From the NCBI GenBank assembly GCA_022483015.1, contig JAKVOB010000001.1, positions 1,512,902 to 1,576,901 of the forward strand: a stretch of DNA of 64,000 nucleotides. Reading direction: 5' to 3'. Positions 11,587 through 20,754 of the stretch are shown here, in pieces. The position numbers and the translations under genes were made by a program. The first letter of the stretch is position 1. Every line of letters begins with the position of its first letter. A model generated the notes under the pieces. The model searched no databases and was not told the DNA's origin. It saw nothing but the letters and a program-made list of their open reading frames with translations. This DNA is from Atopobiaceae bacterium. GTDB taxonomy: Bacteria; Actinomycetota; Coriobacteriia; Coriobacteriales; Atopobiaceae.

Positions 11587-12654
11587 TTGATCTGCCCCTC
11601 CTGCGGAAGCCATATCCCAGACGATGCGCTCGTCTGTCCCGCCTGTCACGCCGACCTGGCGCTGACGAGCATGCTGCCACGCCTCCGAGGCACGTACTGT
11701 GCCTCCTGCGGCGCGCTCGTTCCTACGGGCGCCGCACGCTGCCCCGTCTGCGGCATGCCGGTGGCAGGTGCCTCCCAGAAGGACCCGTCGTCGAGGTCGA
11801 CCCCGTCCGAGGAGGACCTCCCTGACGTCGGGGAGGACGAGGAGGATGACGGAGACCAGGAGTCGCCTACGTCGGTCCTCGACCTGGATGCCGAGAAGAC
11901 CAACGCGCTCCCGCGCATCGAGAGCTCGATTCCCTCCGAGGAGGACGTCCGTGAGGGCGTGTTCGAGCACGAGAAGACCCCACACCGTCGTGTCGTCGTG
12001 CTGGTGGTGCTCGCATCGCTCATCGTGGTGGGCGGCGTCACCCTGTTCATAGCCCACCCATGGGACCCCAACTTCTTCTCGGCCCAGCCTACGGCCGATG
12101 CCGACATGAGCAAGGCCGGTTTCCCCGGCACCATCGAGAAGCTGCAGGGCCAGGACTCGGAGACGGCCCAGACCTCGGACGCTGCCACGGACGCCGCCAC
12201 GACGTCGTCGGGCGACCCGATCTTCGACTCCCTCTCGTCTGACTATGCGCAGCTCGCTGACCTTCGAGACCAGGTGGATGCCAACGAGTCGACCTTTGAC
12301 CAGAGCGCGATCACGGGTGACCTGGCTACGCGCGTCGCGGGCAAGAATGATGCCGATGCGCTTGGCATCACGATATCCAACCTCATCACCGACATCAAGA
12401 AGATCGACGTGTCTTCGACCCCATATGCCGAGGACCAGGAGCATCTCACGACCCTTGCCAACTGGCTGCGCAACCGTACCGACGCCCTCTCGGAGGCTTG
12501 GGCGCTCGACGTGGCAAGTGATGACCCGAGTGCCGACGAGGCCAAGATCAAGGCCCCCCTCGACCGGAACGCGGGGTCGGATGGTACGAGCTCCTATGCG
12601 ACGCTCTTCTCCGAGAACTACTCGGCCTGGGAGCCTGTCAAGAGCTCTTCTTGA
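11587..12654 (+). CDS. Double zinc-ribbon membrane protein, function unknown
   Basis: A 355-residue protein with four regions. Two CxxC...CxxC zinc ribbons occupy Cys3/6/17/20 and Cys38/41/52/55. An acidic, serine-rich linker runs over residues 65-130. One membrane helix spans about 135-155, and the rest, from about 160, should lie outside the membrane with many Asp, Ser and Thr. The zinc ribbons should face the cytosol. The start is a TTG with a strong AAGGAGA eight bases upstream. It precedes a cyclophilin and a TPR protein of the same topology, then the mre cluster, which hints at an envelope role (inference). I do not recognise a characterised homologue. Confidence 0.8.
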   Translation: MICPSCGSHIPDDALVCPACHADLALTSMLPRLRGTYCASCGALVPTGAARCPVCGMPVAGASQKDPSSRSTPSEEDLPDVGEDEEDDGDQESPTSVLDLDAEKTNALPRIESSIPSEEDVREGVFEHEKTPHRRVVVLVVLASLIVVGGVTLFIAHPWDPNFFSAQPTADADMSKAGFPGTIEKLQGQDSETAQTSDAATDAATTSSGDPIFDSLSSDYAQLADLRDQVDANESTFDQSAITGDLATRVAGKNDADALGITISNLITDIKKIDVSSTPYAEDQEHLTTLANWLRNRTDALSEAWALDVASDDPSADEAKIKAPLDRNAGSDGTSSYATLFSENYSAWEPVKSSS

Positions 12655-12729
12655 CCCTCTGGCATGGCCTTTCCCATGGCATTCGCCGTGGTTTTGCATG
12701 CCGAAAGTGTGAATGGGCGTATGTGCTGA

Positions 12730-12735
12730 TAGAAT
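12730..12735 (+). promoter_or_regulatory. Candidate -10 box for the cyclophilin gene
   Basis: TAGAAT lies 59 nt before the start in an otherwise non-coding 139-nt gap. The upstream -35 match is poor (TGTGAA at 16 nt spacing). Confidence 0.4.
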
Positions 12736-12793
12736 AGCGGCTGCTATGTAGACTCCGCGTGTGCCGTGTGGCGCGCGCTCTTTGTAGGGAGGC

Positions 12794-13345
12794 ATGATGG
12801 GGTTTTTCGAGGATCCCCTCTATACGCCAGAGTACCAGGTAAAAGGTGACGAGGTCGCGGTCATCTCCACCAGCAAGGGCACGATCGAGGTCTCGCTTGA
12901 CGGTGCCGGCGCCCCCGTCCATGTGGCCAACTTCTGCGAGCTCGCTAGCTCGGGCTTCTATGATGGGCTGAAGTTCCATCGCTACGTGCCCGGTTTCGTC
13001 ATCCAGGGCGGATGCCCCAACACGCGCGACATGACGCCCTCTGACGTCGCCCAAGGCCATCGTGGGCCTGACGGGATGCCGGGTACCGGCGGTCCCGGTT
13101 ACCGCATCAAGCAGGAGTACACCACTAACCCTCGCAACAGCCACGAGGACGGTGCACTCGCCATGGCGAGGTCACAGTCCCCCGACTCCGCCGGGTCACA
13201 GTTCTACTTCTGCCTCGGCGCTCAGCATGGCCTCGACTCCGGGTATACCGTCTTCGGCTCGACCATCGGCGGCAAGGATGTCATCGACAAGCTCCGTGCC
13301 GGCGATACCATAGAGTCCGTGCGCATCGAGCACCGGGCCGCGTAG
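12794..13345 (+). CDS. Peptidyl-prolyl cis-trans isomerase, cyclophilin type
   Basis: A 183-residue single-domain cyclophilin that should accelerate proline isomerisation in folding proteins. The catalytic region is clear: FHRYVPGFVIQGG with its arginine, then GALAMARSQSPDSAGSQFYFCLG. No signal peptide or membrane segment is seen, so it is probably cytosolic. The double ATG follows GGGAGG closely. A short N-terminal extension (FFEDPLYTPEYQ) precedes the core. The 64 nt to the next gene contain no terminator, so it may be cotranscribed with the TPR gene. Confidence 0.92.
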   Translation: MMGFFEDPLYTPEYQVKGDEVAVISTSKGTIEVSLDGAGAPVHVANFCELASSGFYDGLKFHRYVPGFVIQGGCPNTRDMTPSDVAQGHRGPDGMPGTGGPGYRIKQEYTTNPRNSHEDGALAMARSQSPDSAGSQFYFCLGAQHGLDSGYTVFGSTIGGKDVIDKLRAGDTIESVRIEHRAA

Positions 13346-13409
13346 CCCATCCGTCAAGACACGGCAACGGGCCAGCCCGTCCAGAGCATTCAGAGCAAAA
13401 GGAGCAATC

Positions 13410-14822
13410 GTGGATCAACAGGCATATCTTGCTGCTAAGAACGCCTATCAACAGGGCGACATGGCAGCTGCCGCAAATGCTGCACGCTCCTGCAAGCAGC
13501 CGGGCGAGATCTCGGGTTGTGCTGACCACCTCCTCGGGAACGCCCTCATGAAGATGGGCCGCTATGCCGAGGCGGCCGACGCCTATGGCTCGGCCCTCGA
13601 GGACACCTCCTACGGCAAGTCAGGGGCCCTCTCCTGCAACCGTGGCCGTGCGCTCCTTGCCGCCGGCCAGGTCGACGGTGCCATAACCGCGCTCACGCAG
13701 GCATCCTCAGATGCGAGCTATCCGACCCCATACAAGGCGCAGATGGCGCTCGGCAAGGCGTATACCAGGAAGGGCGACCTGCGCCAGGCGGGTGTCGCCT
13801 TCAGGAACGCCGCCATCGACGAGTCGAACCCGGACCCTTCCGTCGCGCTCATGCGCCTCGGGCGTTGCTTCATGGACCTCGGTCGCCCCGTCGACGCTGT
13901 CGAGGCGTACCGCACCGCCCTGGACTTCTCGACCCCGCTCGAGAGCCAGAACTCCATCTATGCCGAGCTCGGACGTGCCTATGTGGCGGCCAACCGCATG
14001 ACCGAGGCCATCGATGCCTTCGGACATGCCACGGCTGACGGTACCTATCAGCTCTCTCCCGAGGCCGCGGTCGCGTTCCAGTCCGCCCAGCATGCGGTCG
14101 CGGCCATGACGGGTGGTGGTCCGTCCTCCACGGACGCCATGCTTGCGGCCGCCGGCTATGGCGAGGGCGGGACCGGCTCCTACGACCCGCTCGACCCCAT
14201 GGGCAAGTCTGGCGAGATGATGCCGTCGCCCGAGGATACCGGGTTCTTCTCGGTGTCGGAGCAGGAGCTTGTCGAGAACGACAAGAAGGATCGGAAGAAG
14301 AAGCGCCATACGGGCAGGCACATCCTCATAGCGCTTCTGGTCATCCTGCTCCTCCTTGCTGCCGTCGCGGGCTTCGGCTACTACAAGGGTTACGGCTGGC
14401 CGACGCAGGAGGCGACCGTCGAGGCCATGTTCAAGGCCAACACGGACTCCGGTGACATCGGCAGCTACCTCGCCGGGAGCGTCACGAGCGGCACGCGCTC
14501 CGATATCGAGGCCGTGCTTCCCGTCAACGCCACCGTCAAGGTCGACGGCGTCGACCGCTCCATGAGCTCGTCCAAGGTCACCGCGACGGCCACGCTCGAG
14601 GCCGGTGGGACCCAGTCCTACACGATCTCGCTCGTGCGTGACGGCATCGGCTGGAAGGTCGACAACGTCACCGTCGACTATGCGTCACAGGGCGGCACGA
14701 CCGCCTCGCTGAGCGGGACCGCGAAGACGTCCGCTGCGACGACTTCCACTGCCACGACGACCACCGGCACCCTCGCGAGTGCCACGACGGCATCCTCCCA
14801 GGATGCCCAGACCACCAACTAG
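13410..14822 (+). CDS. TPR-repeat single-pass membrane protein, function unknown
   Basis: A 470-residue protein. Residues 1-235 hold about five tetratricopeptide-like repeats (for example LGNALMKMGRYAEAADAYGSAL). A charged stretch, KKDRKKKRHTGRH, precedes a membrane helix at about 305-326. An outer domain of about 100 residues follows, ending in a Thr/Ser/Ala-rich tail from about 420. Topology is probably TPR inside, tail outside. The GTG start follows AAAAGGAG. The stop lies 17 nt before mreB, so it is probably in the mre transcript and may be a scaffold or regulator of cell-wall elongation (inference). Confidence 0.8.
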   Translation: MDQQAYLAAKNAYQQGDMAAAANAARSCKQPGEISGCADHLLGNALMKMGRYAEAADAYGSALEDTSYGKSGALSCNRGRALLAAGQVDGAITALTQASSDASYPTPYKAQMALGKAYTRKGDLRQAGVAFRNAAIDESNPDPSVALMRLGRCFMDLGRPVDAVEAYRTALDFSTPLESQNSIYAELGRAYVAANRMTEAIDAFGHATADGTYQLSPEAAVAFQSAQHAVAAMTGGGPSSTDAMLAAAGYGEGGTGSYDPLDPMGKSGEMMPSPEDTGFFSVSEQELVENDKKDRKKKRHTGRHILIALLVILLLLAAVAGFGYYKGYGWPTQEATVEAMFKANTDSGDIGSYLAGSVTSGTRSDIEAVLPVNATVKVDGVDRSMSSSKVTATATLEAGGTQSYTISLVRDGIGWKVDNVTVDYASQGGTTASLSGTAKTSAATTSTATTTTGTLASATTASSQDAQTTN

Positions 14823-14839
14823 CGGCTGGAGACCCGTAG

Positions 14840-15883
14840 ATGTCGTTCTTTGACTCCATGTTCGGCGAATATGGTGGCGACCTTGCCATCGACCTCGGGA
14901 CGGCCAACACGCTCGTCTCCGTGCGAGGCGAGGGCATCGTCCTGAACGAGCCCTCCGTCGTTGCCATCGACAAGAGCGAGGAGCGCGTGCTCGCCGTGGG
15001 TGCCGACGCCAAGCGCATGGTGGGCCGCACCCCAGGCTCGATCCTTGCCATACGTCCCCTCAAGGACGGCGTCATCGCCGACTTCGACGTGACCGAGGTC
15101 ATGCTCCGCTATTTCATCGAGAAGGCACGCGAGCGACGCTACCCGTGGTCGCCGCGTCCGCGTGTGGTCGTCTGCGTCCCATCGGGCGTGACCTCCGTCG
15201 AGAAGCGCGCGGTTTTCGAGGCGACCATACAGGCAGGTGCGCGTCAGGCCTACCTCATCGAGGAGCCGATGGCGGCAGCCATCGGGGCCGACCTGCCCAT
15301 AGAGGACCCCACCGGCTCCATGGTGGTCGACATCGGCGGCGGCACGACCGAGGTCGCCGTGATCGCCATGGGCGGGATCGTGGTCTCGCAGTCCATCAGG
15401 ACCGCCGGTGACGAGTTCGACCAGACCATCCTCGAGCACGTGCGCGACGCCTACGGCCTCTCGATCGGTGAGCGCACCGCCGAGGACATCAAGATCAAGG
15501 TCGGGTCCGCGGCTCCCCTGAAGGAGGAGCTCGATGTGGAGGTCAACGGCCGTGATGTCATCTCCGGCCTCCCGAAGACCGTGCGCATCGAGAGCGAGGA
15601 GATCAGGCGAGCCCTCAACAGGCCGCTCGACGAGGTCACCAAGGCAGTGAAGGATGCGCTTGACATGACGCCTCCTGACCTGGCAAGCGACCTCATGTAC
15701 TATGGCATCCTGCTCACCGGTGGTGGCGGTTTCCTGCGGGGCCTCGACCAGAGGCTCCGAGAGGAGACGGGTGTTCCTGTCAACGTGAGTCCCACCGCCC
15801 TCGAGAACGTCGTCAACGGATGCGCGAAGGTTCTCGAGGCGAATGCGCTCTCGGGTGGGTTCGTCCAGAGTGCGGCGCAGTAA
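14840..15883 (+). CDS. mreB: Rod shape-determining actin homologue MreB
   Basis: The bacterial actin that forms membrane-bound filaments and guides lateral wall synthesis. The 347-residue protein has the actin-fold ATP-binding signatures DLGTANTLV near the N-terminus, PSGVTSVEKRAV, VVDIGGGTTEVAVIA and LTGGGGFLRGLDQRL. The N-terminal hydrophobic FFDSMFG is a plausible membrane anchor. It heads mreB-mreC-mreD-PBP2-rodA, which together imply a rod-shaped cell with an elongasome. Confidence 0.97.
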   Translation: MSFFDSMFGEYGGDLAIDLGTANTLVSVRGEGIVLNEPSVVAIDKSEERVLAVGADAKRMVGRTPGSILAIRPLKDGVIADFDVTEVMLRYFIEKARERRYPWSPRPRVVVCVPSGVTSVEKRAVFEATIQAGARQAYLIEEPMAAAIGADLPIEDPTGSMVVDIGGGTTEVAVIAMGGIVVSQSIRTAGDEFDQTILEHVRDAYGLSIGERTAEDIKIKVGSAAPLKEELDVEVNGRDVISGLPKTVRIESEEIRRALNRPLDEVTKAVKDALDMTPPDLASDLMYYGILLTGGGGFLRGLDQRLREETGVPVNVSPTALENVVNGCAKVLEANALSGGFVQSAAQ

Positions 15884-15886
15884 CTG

Positions 15887-16885
15887 GTGGCTCGTCTCTC
15901 GCAAAAGGGCCTGGGATCGGTCAACTCGTACAAGAGGGGGAACGGGCCAGGTCCCCTGGTGCGCCCCCTCATATTGTGCTGCGTCGTCTCGATAGCCCTC
16001 CTTGGGGTCTCCTCGGCCGAGGGCGACTCGGGCCCGATCCATGCTGCTCGGGGCGTCTTCCAGACGATCACGATGCCGGTGCGTTATCTCGGCTCGGCCG
16101 TGGCGTCGCCCTTCGCCGGCCTCGGGAACGTATTCACGAACCTCACGGCGAACCAGGAGTCCCTCTCTGAGCTCGAGGCCGAGAACGAGCAACTCAAGAG
16201 CCAGGTCGCCGAGCTGACCGAATCCGATCAGACGGCGACGAGGCTCGAGGACCTTCTCCAGCTCAAGAGCACCTATAGCCTCCAGTCGACGGCCGCCCGC
16301 ATCGTCTCGGGGTCTGGGGACTCGTGGTCGACCTCGGTCACGATCGACAAGGGGACCACATCCGGGTTCGCCGTGGGCATGCCCGTGACGGACTCGATGG
16401 GAGTCATCGGCCAGATCACCGAGTGTGGGCCGTCGACCTCGGTCGTGCGCCTCATATCTGACGAGAGCTCGGGCGTCTCGGCCATGGTCCAGTCGAGCCG
16501 CGCCCAAGGCCAGCTCACGGGATCTGCCGATGGCACGCTGCACCTCACGCTCATCAAGTGCGACCAACAGGTGGCGGTCGGTGACACCGTGGTCACGAGC
16601 GGCCTCGGGGGAGTGTATCCGAAGGGTCTCCCGATCGGTACGGTCACGAGCGTCGAGAAGTCTGACGGCGCGCTCTACTATGACATCACGGTAAGCCAGC
16701 TCGCCTCGACCGAGAACCTCGAGGAGGTCCTGGTCATAACCTCGCTCTCCGAGGACCAGCAGGCCTCGACCGACGAGGTCAGTGCCGCTGACTCGCAGGA
16801 GCGCTCCGAGGCGACGACGGCGGACACGGCCAGCGCGACGACCACCGCTGCTACCACGACGAGCGCCACGACGGACGAGGGGTAG
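15887..16885 (+). CDS. mreC: Rod shape-determining protein MreC
   Basis: Extracytoplasmic scaffold of the elongasome that activates PBP2. The 332-residue product has a cytosolic N-terminus, a membrane helix near 27-45, and a coiled coil at about 88-125 (SLSELEAENEQLKSQVAEL). The double beta-barrel domain typical of MreC follows (KGTTSGFAVGMPV, DTVVTSGLGGVYPKGLPIG). A low-complexity Ala/Thr/Ser tail of about 45 residues ends the protein and resembles the tail of the TPR protein upstream. The GTG start is 3 nt after the mreB stop. Confidence 0.94.
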   Translation: MARLSQKGLGSVNSYKRGNGPGPLVRPLILCCVVSIALLGVSSAEGDSGPIHAARGVFQTITMPVRYLGSAVASPFAGLGNVFTNLTANQESLSELEAENEQLKSQVAELTESDQTATRLEDLLQLKSTYSLQSTAARIVSGSGDSWSTSVTIDKGTTSGFAVGMPVTDSMGVIGQITECGPSTSVVRLISDESSGVSAMVQSSRAQGQLTGSADGTLHLTLIKCDQQVAVGDTVVTSGLGGVYPKGLPIGTVTSVEKSDGALYYDITVSQLASTENLEEVLVITSLSEDQQASTDEVSAADSQERSEATTADTASATTTAATTTSATTDEG

Positions 16886-16891
16886 GCGAAG

Positions 16892-17473
16892 ATGCTCGTC
16901 AACGACAAGAACAACGACCGTAGGTCCTTCATCATCCTCTGCGTGGTGTGCGGCGTCCTCCAGCTCGCCCTCGCGCCGAACGTCTGCATCGCAGACGGGC
17001 GTGCCAACTTCGCCCTCGTGCTCGCCGCCTGTGTGGCGTTCGGCATCGGTGGGGGAAGGGGAGTGGTATGCGGCTTCGCTGCCGGTCTGTTCTTCGACCT
17101 CGCCACGACAGGGCCCATCGGCCTCATGGCCCTCGAGCTCACGGTCTTCTCGTTCGTCGCTGGTTCCCAGGAGCGCAACCGACTTTCCGAGAATCCCGTG
17201 GTCACCTTCGAGCTCTTTGCGGCCGGCGCCCTCGTGGTCTCGCTCTTCTATAACCTCTGCATGGTCATCGTCGGCCAGGCCTCGATCGTCGATGCACTCG
17301 TGTTCCGGACACTCCCCACGACGCTCCTGACCTGCCTCGCCTTCCTCCCGTTCCTCTACCTCCTCTCGAGGGGCATGGGCTCGAGCCCCCGCCTCTCGAG
17401 GTCCTCCCTCGGGTCCTCGTCCTACAAGGGCGCACGGCGCGGTGCCGGTCACCTGCGTACCAAGGGATTGTAG
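16892..17473 (+). CDS. mreD: Rod shape-determining protein MreD
   Basis: A 193-residue integral membrane protein with five or six predicted helices and a basic C-terminal tail. MreD proteins bridge MreC and the PBP2/RodA synthase. Sequence identity across the family is low, so the call rests on length, hydrophobic pattern, the GGGRGVVCGFAAGLFFDL segment and position between mreC and the PBP2 gene, with only 6 nt to mreC. Confidence 0.9.
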   Translation: MLVNDKNNDRRSFIILCVVCGVLQLALAPNVCIADGRANFALVLAACVAFGIGGGRGVVCGFAAGLFFDLATTGPIGLMALELTVFSFVAGSQERNRLSENPVVTFELFAAGALVVSLFYNLCMVIVGQASIVDALVFRTLPTTLLTCLAFLPFLYLLSRGMGSSPRLSRSSLGSSSYKGARRGAGHLRTKGL

Positions 17474-17481
17474 GAGGCGCC

Positions 17482-19509
17482 ATGAGCCTCACCACCATCG
17501 TCATCGTCTGCCTGCTCGTCGCTGCCTTGGCGGCCCTCTGCGCCTATCTCTATCTGCGTTCCAACTCTGGCAAGATGCACTTCGACATCGGCGGGCAGAC
17601 TCCCAAGGCATCGGGCGGCAACGACACGTCGCCCGAGACGGGCTTCAAGACGCGGATCCACGGCGTGGGCATCTTCTGCGGTGGTGTCATCGCCGCCCTC
17701 CTCGCCCGTCTCTGGAGCATGCAGCTCGTCTCGAGTGACACCTACACCGAGCAGGCCGAGCAGAACCGCACGCGCACCATCTCGACCATCGCCCCCCGTG
17801 GACGGATCCTGGACCGCAACGGTGCCGAGCTCGTCACCAACCGGTCGAGCCTGACGGCCGTCGCCTATGAGTCGGTGGCGGACGACGACATCGAGCTGCA
17901 GCTCCTCGCCAACCTCCTCGGCATGCCCGTGACGGCGGTGAAGAGGAAGATACAGGATGAGACCGAGGGTGCGCAGAGCGCCCATACCGTCGCCGTGGAC
18001 GTCTCTCGGCGGGTGGTCGCGTTCATACAGGAGCATCCGGACGCCTTCTCGCAGGTCTCCATCGAGCAGCGGACGCAGAGGTATTATCCCCTCGGCAACG
18101 TCGCCGCCCATCTCCTCGGGTATACCGGCACCGTGACCTCCGACCAGCTCAACTCCACGAGCGACGACGAGTCTGCCATCTCCTACGAGTCCGGTGACAC
18201 CGTGGGCCAGGCAGGCATCGAGTACCAGTATGAGTCGGTCCTCCAAGGGGTTCGTGGGGAACAGACGGTCTATGTCGATGCCTCAGGCAACGTGACCGGG
18301 TATTCGACCTCCATCGACCCGACGAGCGGGAGTGACATAGAGCTCACGCTCGATGCCTCGATTCAGCAGGCCGCCGAGAGCGGGCTTGCGCATGCCATCC
18401 AGGCATCCAAGGACAAGGGTAATGCCGACTGCAAGTCGGGGGCCATCGTCGTCCTGGATGCCACCAATGGAGAGGTGCTTGCCATGGCAAGCGCGCCGCA
18501 GTTCAACCCCTCCATCTTCGTCGGTGGCATATCCAACGACGACTGGGAGGCCCTCTCTTCGGACGATTCGGGGAACCCCCTCATGAACAGGGCCGTCGCT
18601 GGCCAGTACATGTCGGCCTCGACCATCAAGCCCATCGGGGCGCTCGCTGCCCTCGACCACGGCATCGCCACCGCAGACACGGGTTACGACTGCACGGGCT
18701 ATTGGACGGGCTTCGGAGACGCCTACGGGCAGTACTGCTGGCTCCATACGGGGCATGGCTACATGACGCTCCAGACGGGCATCACCTACTCGTGCGACAC
18801 CGTCTTCTACGAGATCGGCAAAGACTTCTACTACTCCTCCACCCCCGAGGGCCTGCAGGAGACCTACCGCAAGTGGGGACTTGGCACCGCCACTGGCATC
18901 GACCTCCCCGCCGAGGGCTCGGGAAGGGTCCCCGATGCCGAGTGGAAGGCCGACTACTTCTCGAGCTACTCCGATGACCAGCGTGCCTGGCAGGGCGGCG
19001 ACATGACGAACCTCGCCATCGGCCAGGGCGACCTGCTCGTGACCCCGCTGCAGATGGCCTGCGCCTATGCGGGAATCGCCACGAGGGGCACCATCTGGCA
19101 GCCCCATGTGCTGAAGGGGATCCTGGCACGAGGCTCCTCCGGGACCATCTCCGAGTATGCCTGCGCCGCGCTCCATACGCCTTCCGAGTCAGAGGACTAC
19201 TTCGACCTTGTGAGGACCGGGCTCAAGGGGGTCATATACGAGGAGAGCGATTCGCTCGCGAGCCATTTCACCAACCTCGACGTGACCGTCGCGGGAAAGA
19301 CGGGGTCGGGCGAGAAGACCAACGAGGCGGCGACGGGTTGGTTCTGCGCGTTCGCACCGTTCGACGACCCGAAGTACGCCCTTGCGGCCGTGGTCGAGCA
19401 AGGCGGCTTCGGTGCGACCTCGGCCATGTATGCGGTCCGCGACACGCTCGGGGGCATCTATGACGAACCGGACACGTCCACGGTCACCATGGACGACAGC
19501 ACGAGATAG
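17482..19509 (+). CDS. mrdA: Penicillin-binding protein 2, elongation transpeptidase
   Basis: Crosslinks peptidoglycan during side-wall growth. The 675-residue class B PBP has a pedestal domain (APRGRILDRNGAEL) and a transpeptidase domain with Ser380-T-I-Lys383 as SxxK, Ser437-Cys-Asp439 as the SxN box (Asp for Asn, seen in other PBP2s), and Lys606-Thr-Gly. Two hydrophobic segments precede the catalytic part, at about 5-26 and 58-78, instead of the usual one; the first would place the N-terminus outside. The gene starts 8 nt after mreD and is followed 9 nt later by rodA, its glycosyltransferase partner. Confidence 0.95.
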   Translation: MSLTTIVIVCLLVAALAALCAYLYLRSNSGKMHFDIGGQTPKASGGNDTSPETGFKTRIHGVGIFCGGVIAALLARLWSMQLVSSDTYTEQAEQNRTRTISTIAPRGRILDRNGAELVTNRSSLTAVAYESVADDDIELQLLANLLGMPVTAVKRKIQDETEGAQSAHTVAVDVSRRVVAFIQEHPDAFSQVSIEQRTQRYYPLGNVAAHLLGYTGTVTSDQLNSTSDDESAISYESGDTVGQAGIEYQYESVLQGVRGEQTVYVDASGNVTGYSTSIDPTSGSDIELTLDASIQQAAESGLAHAIQASKDKGNADCKSGAIVVLDATNGEVLAMASAPQFNPSIFVGGISNDDWEALSSDDSGNPLMNRAVAGQYMSASTIKPIGALAALDHGIATADTGYDCTGYWTGFGDAYGQYCWLHTGHGYMTLQTGITYSCDTVFYEIGKDFYYSSTPEGLQETYRKWGLGTATGIDLPAEGSGRVPDAEWKADYFSSYSDDQRAWQGGDMTNLAIGQGDLLVTPLQMACAYAGIATRGTIWQPHVLKGILARGSSGTISEYACAALHTPSESEDYFDLVRTGLKGVIYEESDSLASHFTNLDVTVAGKTGSGEKTNEAATGWFCAFAPFDDPKYALAAVVEQGGFGATSAMYAVRDTLGGIYDEPDTSTVTMDDSTR

Positions 19510-19518
19510 GGGAGGGGC

Positions 19519-20754
19519 ATGGGCGAGTCGGGCTACTCAGGAAATCTTCGTGACATCGGCTTCGGGGGGCTCGTCTCGTCCCTCTTCGGCGGGGATGCCG
19601 GCAAGCGACCGGGTGCCGCGCGCATGCGGCAGCGCAAGGGGCTTCTCGGCGACCTCTACTTCCCGGTCCTGATCCCCGCGCTCGCGCTCATCGTCTACGG
19701 GCTCATCGTCATCTGGTCGGCATCCCTCTCCATATCGGAGGCCTCGTTCCCTCGCCAGCTCCTCGGGGCCTGCATCGGCCTCGTGGCTGCCGGCGTCGTG
19801 TGGCGCCATGACTATCGGAACCTTGCCAACATGACGACGGCCCTGCTCGTCATCGATATCGTGCTCATGCTGCTCCCCCATGTTCCTGGCATCTCCTACT
19901 CCGCGAAGGGTCTCACGGGATGGATCAAGATCCCCCTCATCAACCTGACCTTCCAGCCTGCCGAGCTTGCCAAGCTGGTGACGATCTACCTCATGGCGGC
20001 CCTGGCGGCCCAGTACAACGGGAAGATCAAGACCCTCTCCGACTATCTCAAGCTCTGCGGCATCCTCTGCGTGCCGTTCGCGCTGATCCTCATGCAACCC
20101 GACCTCGGGACCGGCCTCGTGGTCCTCTTCCTCGGTGCCGTCATCATCGTCTGCGGCGGTGCGCGACGGAGCTGGGTGCTTGTGACGCTTGCCGTGGTGG
20201 TGGCGGGTGCTGCGTTGGTCGTCATCACCTCCTCAACGGACGGGTTGCCGCATATACTCAAGGAGTACCAGCTCAAGCGCCTCATGGTCTTCATCGACCC
20301 CTCCGTCGACCCGACAGGTGATGGCTACAACCTGCAACAGGCTGAGATCGCCGTGGGAAGCGGCGGCTTCTTCGGTAAGGGTATCGGCAACGCGACCCAG
20401 GCGGGCCAGGGCTTCCTGCCCGAGGCCCACACCGACTTCGTGTTCGCGCTCGTGGCCGAGGAGTTCGGGTTCCTGGGGGTCATCGTGCTCCTCGGACTCT
20501 TCGGGTGGCTCTTCTTCGCGACCCTGAAGCTCGCGCTCAAGGTGGACGCCCCCTTCGCCAAGCTCGTGCTCGTAGGCGTCGTGGCCATGTGGAGCTTCCA
20601 GCTGCTCGAGAACGTCGGGATGTGCATCGGCATCATGCCGATCACAGGTATCCCGCTTCCCTTCATCAGCTATGGGTCCTCTTCGATGATATGCCAGGTC
20701 ATGGCTGTGGGTATGGTCCAGTCCGTCTGGTTCCATCGGACAAAGTCAGCCTGA
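19519..20754 (+). CDS. rodA: Peptidoglycan glycosyltransferase RodA (SEDS family)
   Basis: Polymerises lipid II into glycan strands together with PBP2. The 411-residue SEDS protein has about ten membrane helices after a basic 50-residue cytosolic N-terminus. Family landmarks include TGWIKIPLINLTFQPAELAK, the substrate-cavity LMQPDLGTG segment, GKGIGNATQAGQGFLPEAHTDFVFAL with the catalytic Glu/Asp region, and the C-terminal GIPLPFISYGSSS. The position immediately after PBP2 favours RodA over FtsW. Confidence 0.95.
   Translation: MGESGYSGNLRDIGFGGLVSSLFGGDAGKRPGAARMRQRKGLLGDLYFPVLIPALALIVYGLIVIWSASLSISEASFPRQLLGACIGLVAAGVVWRHDYRNLANMTTALLVIDIVLMLLPHVPGISYSAKGLTGWIKIPLINLTFQPAELAKLVTIYLMAALAAQYNGKIKTLSDYLKLCGILCVPFALILMQPDLGTGLVVLFLGAVIIVCGGARRSWVLVTLAVVVAGAALVVITSSTDGLPHILKEYQLKRLMVFIDPSVDPTGDGYNLQQAEIAVGSGGFFGKGIGNATQAGQGFLPEAHTDFVFALVAEEFGFLGVIVLLGLFGWLFFATLKLALKVDAPFAKLVLVGVVAMWSFQLLENVGMCIGIMPITGIPLPFISYGSSSMICQVMAVGMVQSVWFHRTKSA

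What the first reader, a model, noticed from the sequence alone, without database searches (positions are those of the whole stretch)
11587..14839. Zinc-ribbon, cyclophilin and TPR membrane proteins leading into the mre cluster
Two neighbouring proteins share a layout: a cytosolic sensor or scaffold (double zinc ribbon; TPR array), one membrane helix, and an outer low-complexity domain rich in Ser/Thr/Ala/Asp. The TPR gene ends 17 nt before mreB with no terminator. MreC has a similar Thr/Ala tail. Inference: accessory elongasome factors specific to this lineage, with the outer domains in the wall and the inner domains recruiting MreB or precursor enzymes.
Basis: inference. Interest (0 to 1): 0.6.

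Follow-up and report, generated by a model that had tools for sequence, protein, structure and literature searches.

The report
Class-wide TPR membrane protein beside mreB
The gene just before the rod-shape operon encodes an undescribed one-pass membrane protein (repeat scaffold inside, small folded domain outside) kept by nearly every Coriobacteriia genome, but its contact with mreB arose late, after another gene was lost, so a cell-elongation role is possible but not shown.

Summary
The three genes are real. The TPR gene ends 17 nt before mreB with no terminator. The "low-complexity outer domains" are mostly wrong: the zinc-ribbon protein ends in a confident helical bundle, and the TPR protein has a conserved folded domain of about 95 aa (alpha-alpha-beta4, probably NTF2-like). 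Its Ser/Thr/Ala tail is confined largely to two families, and such tails are common on exported proteins of this genome. The cyclophilin is not a membrane protein here.

The TPR protein is single-copy in 146 of 148 Coriobacteriia genomes and almost absent elsewhere. Its steady neighbours are the cyclophilin upstream (77 of 82 loci) and, outside two families, ndk downstream (54 of 55). It touches mreB only in the window's family (Atopobiaceae) and a sister family (27 of 27), where ndk has gone from between. RodZ is present separately. The zinc-ribbon gene is confined to those two families.

Best reading: a class-wide envelope scaffold or sensor that later became joined to the elongation operon. 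New clues are an invariant cytosolic Phe-Phe motif and groove residues (His40, Asn44, Asn77, Lys109) placed like a TPR carboxylate clamp. A dedicated elongasome role is plausible (about 0.25), not shown.

The parts
11587..12654 (+). Double-zinc-ribbon, one-TM protein (355 aa, TTG start) with an outer helical bundle; present at this locus only in the window's family and a sister family
11593..11751 (+). Cytosolic double zinc ribbon, residues 3-55, eight Cys invariant in 58 sequences
11986..12054 (+). TM helix of the zinc-ribbon protein, residues 134-156
12217..12621 (+). Outer helical bundle, residues 211-345, pLDDT mostly 94-98 (one block 88)
12674..12691 (+). Terminator-like hairpin plus T run after the zinc-ribbon gene (consensus scan, near chance level; rarely found in relatives)
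12794..13345 (+). Cyclophilin-type peptidyl-prolyl isomerase, no signal peptide or TM here; upstream neighbour of the TPR gene in 77 of 82 loci
13410..14822 (+). TPR - TM - outer-domain protein (470 aa, GTG start); single copy in 146 of 148 Coriobacteriia genomes
13410..14111 (+). Cytosolic TPR superhelix, residues 1-234
13527..13736 (+). Span of the clamp-like groove residues His40, Asn44, Asn77, Lys109 (conserved in 60, 61, 61 and, as K or R, 61 of 61 sequences)
14244..14249 (+). Invariant Phe279-Phe280 in the cytosolic linker before the TM helix (61 of 61)
14310..14384 (+). TM helix of the TPR protein, residues 301-325
14388..14678 (+). Conserved outer domain (folded part about residues 333-423), alpha-alpha-beta4, probably NTF2-like, no Pfam family over cut-off
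14688..14819 (+). Disordered Ser/Thr/Ala tail, residues 427-470, long mainly in two families
14840..15883 (+). mreB, downstream neighbour here (17-nt gap)
15887..20754 (+). mreC, mreD, PBP2 (mrdA) and rodA, continuing the operon

Best explanation
The main object is a conserved one-pass membrane protein of Coriobacteriia. Shown: the sequence is a TPR array, a linker with an invariant Phe-Phe, one membrane helix, and a small outer domain predicted to fold; it occurs once per genome. Inferred: the TPR array is in the cytosol and its groove holds the C-terminal or acidic tail of a client protein, through His40, Asn44, Asn77 and Lys109, which sit where TPR carboxylate clamps have their binding residues. 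Inferred: the outer domain is NTF2-like and binds or senses something in the wall space, so that the protein ties a cytosolic client to an envelope site or signal. Its old partners by gene order are a peptidyl-prolyl isomerase (exported lipoprotein in most basal-order loci, cytosolic-looking in Coriobacteriales) and, downstream, ndk. In the window's family and its sister family, ndk left the locus and the gene came to lie directly before mreB, so it is probably now transcribed with the elongation operon. That makes coordination with wall growth possible there without showing that it is an elongasome part. The zinc-ribbon protein is a separate neighbour confined to these two families.
For: Present in 146 of 148 class genomes, almost always once, against one clear homologue among the non-Coriobacteriia genomes of a 246-genome and a 396-genome phylum sample. 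Cyclophilin upstream in 77 of 82 loci; ndk downstream in 54 of 55 loci outside the two families; mreB adjacent in 27 of 27 loci of the two families and 0 of 55 others. ndk absent from the Atopobiaceae genomes listed and elsewhere in Coriobacteriaceae. Structure model with confident TPR, TM and outer domain. FF and Trp invariant in 61 of 61. Clamp positions: 4 of 5 conserved in one triple of repeats, post hoc p about 0.0014 to 0.006 by cut-off; the clamp of Tah1 is formed by Lys8, Asn12, Asn43 and Lys79 (PMC4427203). Outer domain: weak recurrent matches to NTF2-like DUF3828 and DUF4878, which have a conserved C-terminal Trp (PMC3924330). No terminator-like site in 76 CYP-TPR gaps and 1 in 80 TPR-mreB gaps.
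Against: No ligand or partner is known. The clamp lacks the usual Arg (position 113 is Ala/Gly), and Asn at these positions is common in consensus TPRs (own knowledge), so only His40 and Lys109 are distinctive. The NTF2 assignment rests on sub-threshold matches and predicted topology; the outer domain was not folded or searched alone. Topology is inferred from charge. Gene order may persist by drift in a slowly rearranging region.
Confidence: 0.55

Rival explanations
1. Dedicated elongasome accessory factor: the TPR domain recruits MreB or a precursor enzyme from inside while the outer domain meets the MreC-PBP2-RodA side, acting beside RodZ.
For: Directly upstream of mreB, same strand, short gap, in 80 of 80 named Atopobiaceae loci and 27 of 27 loci of two families. 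In most other loci mreB still lies within about 12 kb downstream on the same strand (46 of 55). G008 lacks TPR, mreB and mreC. Distances of TPR and Mre proteins correlate 0.89-0.92 (no independent control).
Against: Adjacency is derived; ndk, hydrogenase or Rnf genes intervene elsewhere. TPR stays with ndk, usually with the cyclophilin too, when mreB lies 41-212 kb away. RodZ-type HTH_25 is present separately in 147 of 148 genomes. Absence in G008 may be an assembly gap. G098 has mreB and mreC without a TPR hit.
Confidence: 0.25
2. Export or envelope protein quality control: the TPR protein works with the neighbouring prolyl isomerase on folding or assembly of exported proteins, and wall growth is incidental.
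For: The cyclophilin is the commonest upstream neighbour (77 of 82) and is a signal-peptide lipoprotein in 17 of 18 basal-order loci. Many TPR domains bind chaperones (established knowledge).
Against: The cyclophilin lost its export signal in Coriobacteriales (0 of 38) while the TPR protein kept its outer domain. CYP is missing upstream in 5 of 82 loci.
Confidence: 0.25
3. No functional tie between the neighbours: old gene order kept by chance, with the TPR protein having an unrelated housekeeping role.
For: Intervening genes are metabolic by sequence inspection (ndk, hydrogenase-like, Rnf), and the block stays collinear whatever its content.
Against: CYP-TPR stay together when the surroundings change, with a median gap of 33 nt and no terminator-like sites in named Atopobiaceae loci.
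Confidence: 0.2

Closest known systems
RodZ
   Same: One-pass membrane protein, cytosolic N-terminal interaction domain, outer C-terminal part, tied to wall elongation
   Different: RodZ has an HTH_25 domain; this has TPRs and no HTH_25. A RodZ-like protein is separately encoded in this genome at G000:C1:1637407
NTF2-like outer domains DUF3828 / DUF4878 (PF12883, PF12870)
   Same: Small alpha+beta domain with a conserved Trp near the C-terminus; recurrent weak profile matches (PMC3924330)
   Different: Window sequence scores below curated cut-offs; only two outer helices and four strands predicted; attached to a TM and cytosolic TPR array
TPR carboxylate-clamp co-chaperones (Hop, CHIP, Tah1)
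   Same: Groove residues at repeat positions 5, 9, 6 and 2 conserved as His, Asn, Asn, Lys/Arg; Tah1 uses Lys8, Asn12, Asn43, Lys79 (PMC4427203)
   Different: His replaces the first Lys; position 6 of the third repeat is Ala/Gly, not Arg; membrane-anchored bacterial protein with unknown ligand
Cysteine-motif / zinc membrane proteins TcaA and Lactococcus Llmg_0524, Llmg_0526
   Same: For the zinc-ribbon protein: N-terminal cytosolic Cys motif, TM, outer part; Llmg_0524 linked to cell wall integrity (PMC4628341)
   Different: Two ribbons and an outer helical bundle here; TcaA model 12 bits against a cut-off of 550
PilF/PilW and MamA TPR proteins
   Same: Similar TPR superhelix (PilF Z 19.7, rmsd 4.7, 215 aligned; MamA Z 18.5, rmsd 2.3, 172 aligned)
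   Different: Scores far below curated cut-offs; helical repeats give high Z generically; no comparable TM-linked outer domain known to me

Membership tests
RodZ | N-terminal HTH_25 domain | tested here: not met
   Pfam scan of the TPR protein shows no HTH_25; a separate HTH_25-TM protein lies elsewhere in the genome
TPR repeat proteins | TPR repeats over Pfam gathering score | tested here: met
   TPR_2 59.5 bits vs 27; TPR_16 59.8 vs 32.7
NTF2-like superfamily (outer domain) | Profile match over cut-off to an NTF2-like family | tested here: not met
   Window sequence 12.7 bits vs 26 for DUF3828; 23 of 40 members match DUF3828 weakly, best 3e-4
NTF2-like superfamily (outer domain) | Cone-like alpha+beta fold | tested here: inconclusive
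   Model shows two helices and four strands; domain not folded or searched alone, structure searches dominated by TPR
TPR carboxylate clamp | Lys5/Asn9, Asn6, Lys2/Arg6 in three successive repeats | tested here: inconclusive
   His40, Asn44, Asn77, Lys109 conserved; the Arg position is Ala113; register set by TPR consensus, no coordinates measured
mre operon member | Conserved adjacency to mreB across the class | tested here: not met
   27 of 27 loci in two families, 0 of 55 elsewhere
Elongasome component | Localisation with, or binding to, MreB, MreC, PBP2 or RodA | not testable with these tools
   needs imaging or interaction assays
Double zinc ribbon proteins | Two CxxC...CxxC ribbons | tested here: met
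   DZR 38.6 bits vs 27.3; eight Cys invariant
TcaA | NCBIfam teico_TcaA cut-off | tested here: not met
   12.1 bits vs 550
Cyclophilin-type PPIase | Pro_isomerase domain | tested here: met
   PF00160 2.7e-39
Type IV pilus PilW/PilF | NCBIfam type_IV_pilW cut-off | tested here: not met
   42.9 bits vs 154

The most novel reading that the evidence does not exclude
The TPR protein is a second transmembrane adaptor of the Coriobacteriia wall-elongation machine, acting beside RodZ: a carboxylate-clamp TPR inside picks up a client by its C-terminus, the invariant Phe-Phe segment contacts the machine at the membrane, and the NTF2-like outer domain reads the wall.
Probability: 0.15. Interest if true: 0.65.

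Novelty: new variant of a known kind. Interest (0 to 1): 0.38.

Why it matters
Little is known of how Coriobacteriia, common gut and oral bacteria, build their envelope; a search of open-access papers found none on their mre genes beyond passing mentions. A single-copy, nearly class-wide membrane protein with invariant motifs and no described family in the libraries searched is a good candidate for a core envelope function, and point mutations can test it. The survey also warns that contact with a famous operon can be a by-product of gene loss.

Tried and rejected
Shared Ser/Thr/Ala tails as an elongasome signature: rejected, common on exported proteins of this genome and short or absent in most relatives. 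TPR as a RodZ replacement: rejected, RodZ-like protein present. Pilus role suggested by the PilW-like hit: rejected; the blocks beside TPR in basal orders are ndk, hydrogenase-like and Rnf genes by sequence inspection, not pilus genes. Cyclophilin C-terminus as the clamp ligand: rejected, not conserved and in another compartment in basal orders. Co-loss of TPR and mreB as evidence: inconclusive; G108's contig ends before where mreB would lie, G511 and G540 were seen only as short fragments, and G457 and G008 may be gaps. Rate correlation: no independent control. Structure search of the zinc-ribbon outer bundle: only generic helical bundles, best Z 11.7, within the range expected for unrelated bundles. 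Solved-structure sequence search of the outer domain: best match a designed protein at E 0.019. First-pass gene calling chose a long antisense ORF over mreB and was redone.
Full report
WHAT IS THERE. The window lies at G000:C1:1512902-1576901 of a 2.28-Mb genome. Five genes run in a row on the + strand: a double-zinc-ribbon membrane protein (11587-12654), a cyclophilin (12794-13345), a TPR membrane protein (13410-14822), mreB (14840-15883) and mreC (15887-16885), followed by mreD, PBP2 and rodA. The coordinates in the finding are right, and the 17-nt TPR-mreB gap has no terminator-like site.

CORRECTIONS TO THE ANATOMY. The zinc-ribbon protein has two cytosolic ribbons with eight invariant Cys, a TM helix, a low-complexity spacer and a confidently predicted helical bundle at 211-345. 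The TPR protein has a confident TPR superhelix at 1-234, a linker, a TM helix at 301-325, a confident outer alpha-alpha-beta4 domain at about 333-423, and a disordered tail at 427-470. Across 61 class members the outer domain is conserved with an invariant Trp, the cytosolic linker keeps an invariant Phe-Phe, and the tail is 10 residues or fewer in 39 of 40 loci outside f1/f3. In a sample of 295 predicted proteins of this genome, 13 of 47 one- or two-TM proteins have Ser/Thr/Ala-rich stretches, RodZ and MreC included, so the shared tails say little about function. The cyclophilin here has no signal peptide; in basal orders 17 of 18 loci encode a lipoprotein version, against 0 of 38 in Coriobacteriales loci and the window.

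DISTRIBUTION. TPR protein: 146 of 148 class genomes, almost always once. mreB: 146 of 148, and 324 of 329 in the larger sample. RodZ-type HTH_25: 147 of 148. Zinc-ribbon protein: 51 of 148, all in f1 and f3. Outside the class, two phylum samples gave one clear homologue, G366, split over two contigs and next to a DUF1015-like gene and a PHP-domain-like gene (identified by eye), with no mre gene seen on those stretches; its FF, TM and outer domain are recognisable.

NEIGHBOURHOODS. In 82 loci the cyclophilin is directly upstream of TPR in 77. ndk is directly downstream in 54 of 55 f2 and basal loci and in none of 27 f1/f3 loci. mreB is directly downstream in 27 of 27 f1/f3 loci and in none of 55 others; in 46 of those 55 it lies further down on the same strand, after ndk and often hydrogenase-like and Rnf genes. 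mreB lies elsewhere on the same contig in G137 (67 kb), G063 (212 kb), G136 (204 kb) and G006 (41 kb), while TPR keeps its own ndk or hydrogenase-like neighbours. No ndk was found in the f1 genomes listed, and it lies elsewhere in f3. The simplest history is that ndk left the locus in the f1-f3 ancestor and brought TPR and mreB together; insertion in the other lineages is not formally excluded but needs the same ndk position to arise in all of them. In 80 named Atopobiaceae loci the TPR-mreB gap is 8-141 nt in 79 and 463 in one, with 1 terminator-like site in 80 and none in 76 cyclophilin-TPR gaps, so shared transcription there is likely but unmeasured. The aconitase-zinc-ribbon gap is short in relatives (median 31 nt) and the zinc-ribbon-cyclophilin gap longer (median 129 nt); the zinc-ribbon gene may belong with aconitase.

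MECHANISM CLUES. Outside the structural TPR positions, conservation includes His40 (60 of 61), Asn44 (61), Asn77 (61) and Lys/Arg109 (61). By TPR register these are positions 5 and 9, 6, and 2 of repeats 2, 3 and 4: four of the five positions of the two-carboxylate clamp (positions from own knowledge of Hop TPR1). A hypergeometric estimate corrected for four triples gives about 0.0014 to 0.006 depending on the conservation cut-off; it was made after seeing the pattern. Tah1 uses Lys8, Asn12, Asn43 and Lys79 in its clamp (PMC4427203). The outer domain has sub-threshold matches to DUF3828 (23 of 40 members) and DUF4878 (7 of 40), described as NTF2-like, with a conserved C-terminal Trp and proposed small-molecule or extracellular ligand binding (PMC3924330). 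From this I infer a bitopic scaffold or sensor. Shown: sequence anatomy, conservation, gene order. Inferred: topology, groove function, NTF2 fold, any tie to wall growth.

VERDICT. The elongasome inference is possible (about 0.25) but weaker than it looked, because the mreB contact is derived and the stable partners are the cyclophilin and ndk. The more interesting object is the class-wide TPR-TM-outer-domain protein itself, which has no described family in the libraries searched.

Noticed in passing
L077-L136 (cyclophilin genes): The cyclophilin upstream of TPR is a signal-peptide lipoprotein in 17 of 18 basal-order loci and lacks any signal in 38 of 38 Coriobacteriales proteins: a change of compartment.
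   Followed up: partly
Eggerthellaceae-like loci L097-L115 (mreB): MreB there is about 60% identical to the window family and 57% to basal orders, while those two share 68%: accelerated or replaced MreB at the same locus.
   Followed up: no
whole class: ndk (nucleoside diphosphate kinase) was not found in the window genome or the other same-family genomes listed as lacking it.
   Followed up: partly
L245:14689-15948: Another one-TM protein of this genome with Ser/Thr-rich sequence after the TM and TPRs on the C-terminal side, topologically the reverse of the TPR protein studied.
   Followed up: no
window 14819-17452, - strand: Antisense ORF of 877 codons opposite mreBCD; rejected by a protein-composition score, most likely a by-product of G+C-rich coding.
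   Followed up: partly
L237:8640-10217: RodZ-like protein of this genome, about 525 aa, with a long cytosolic linker and Ser/Thr-rich outer stretches, in a longer open frame than the roughly 260-aa ones in basal orders.
   Followed up: no
L236:3-1670 and L235:1976-3076: G366 homologue with a long Pro/Glu/Ala-rich linker, split over two contigs at the repeat.
   Followed up: partly
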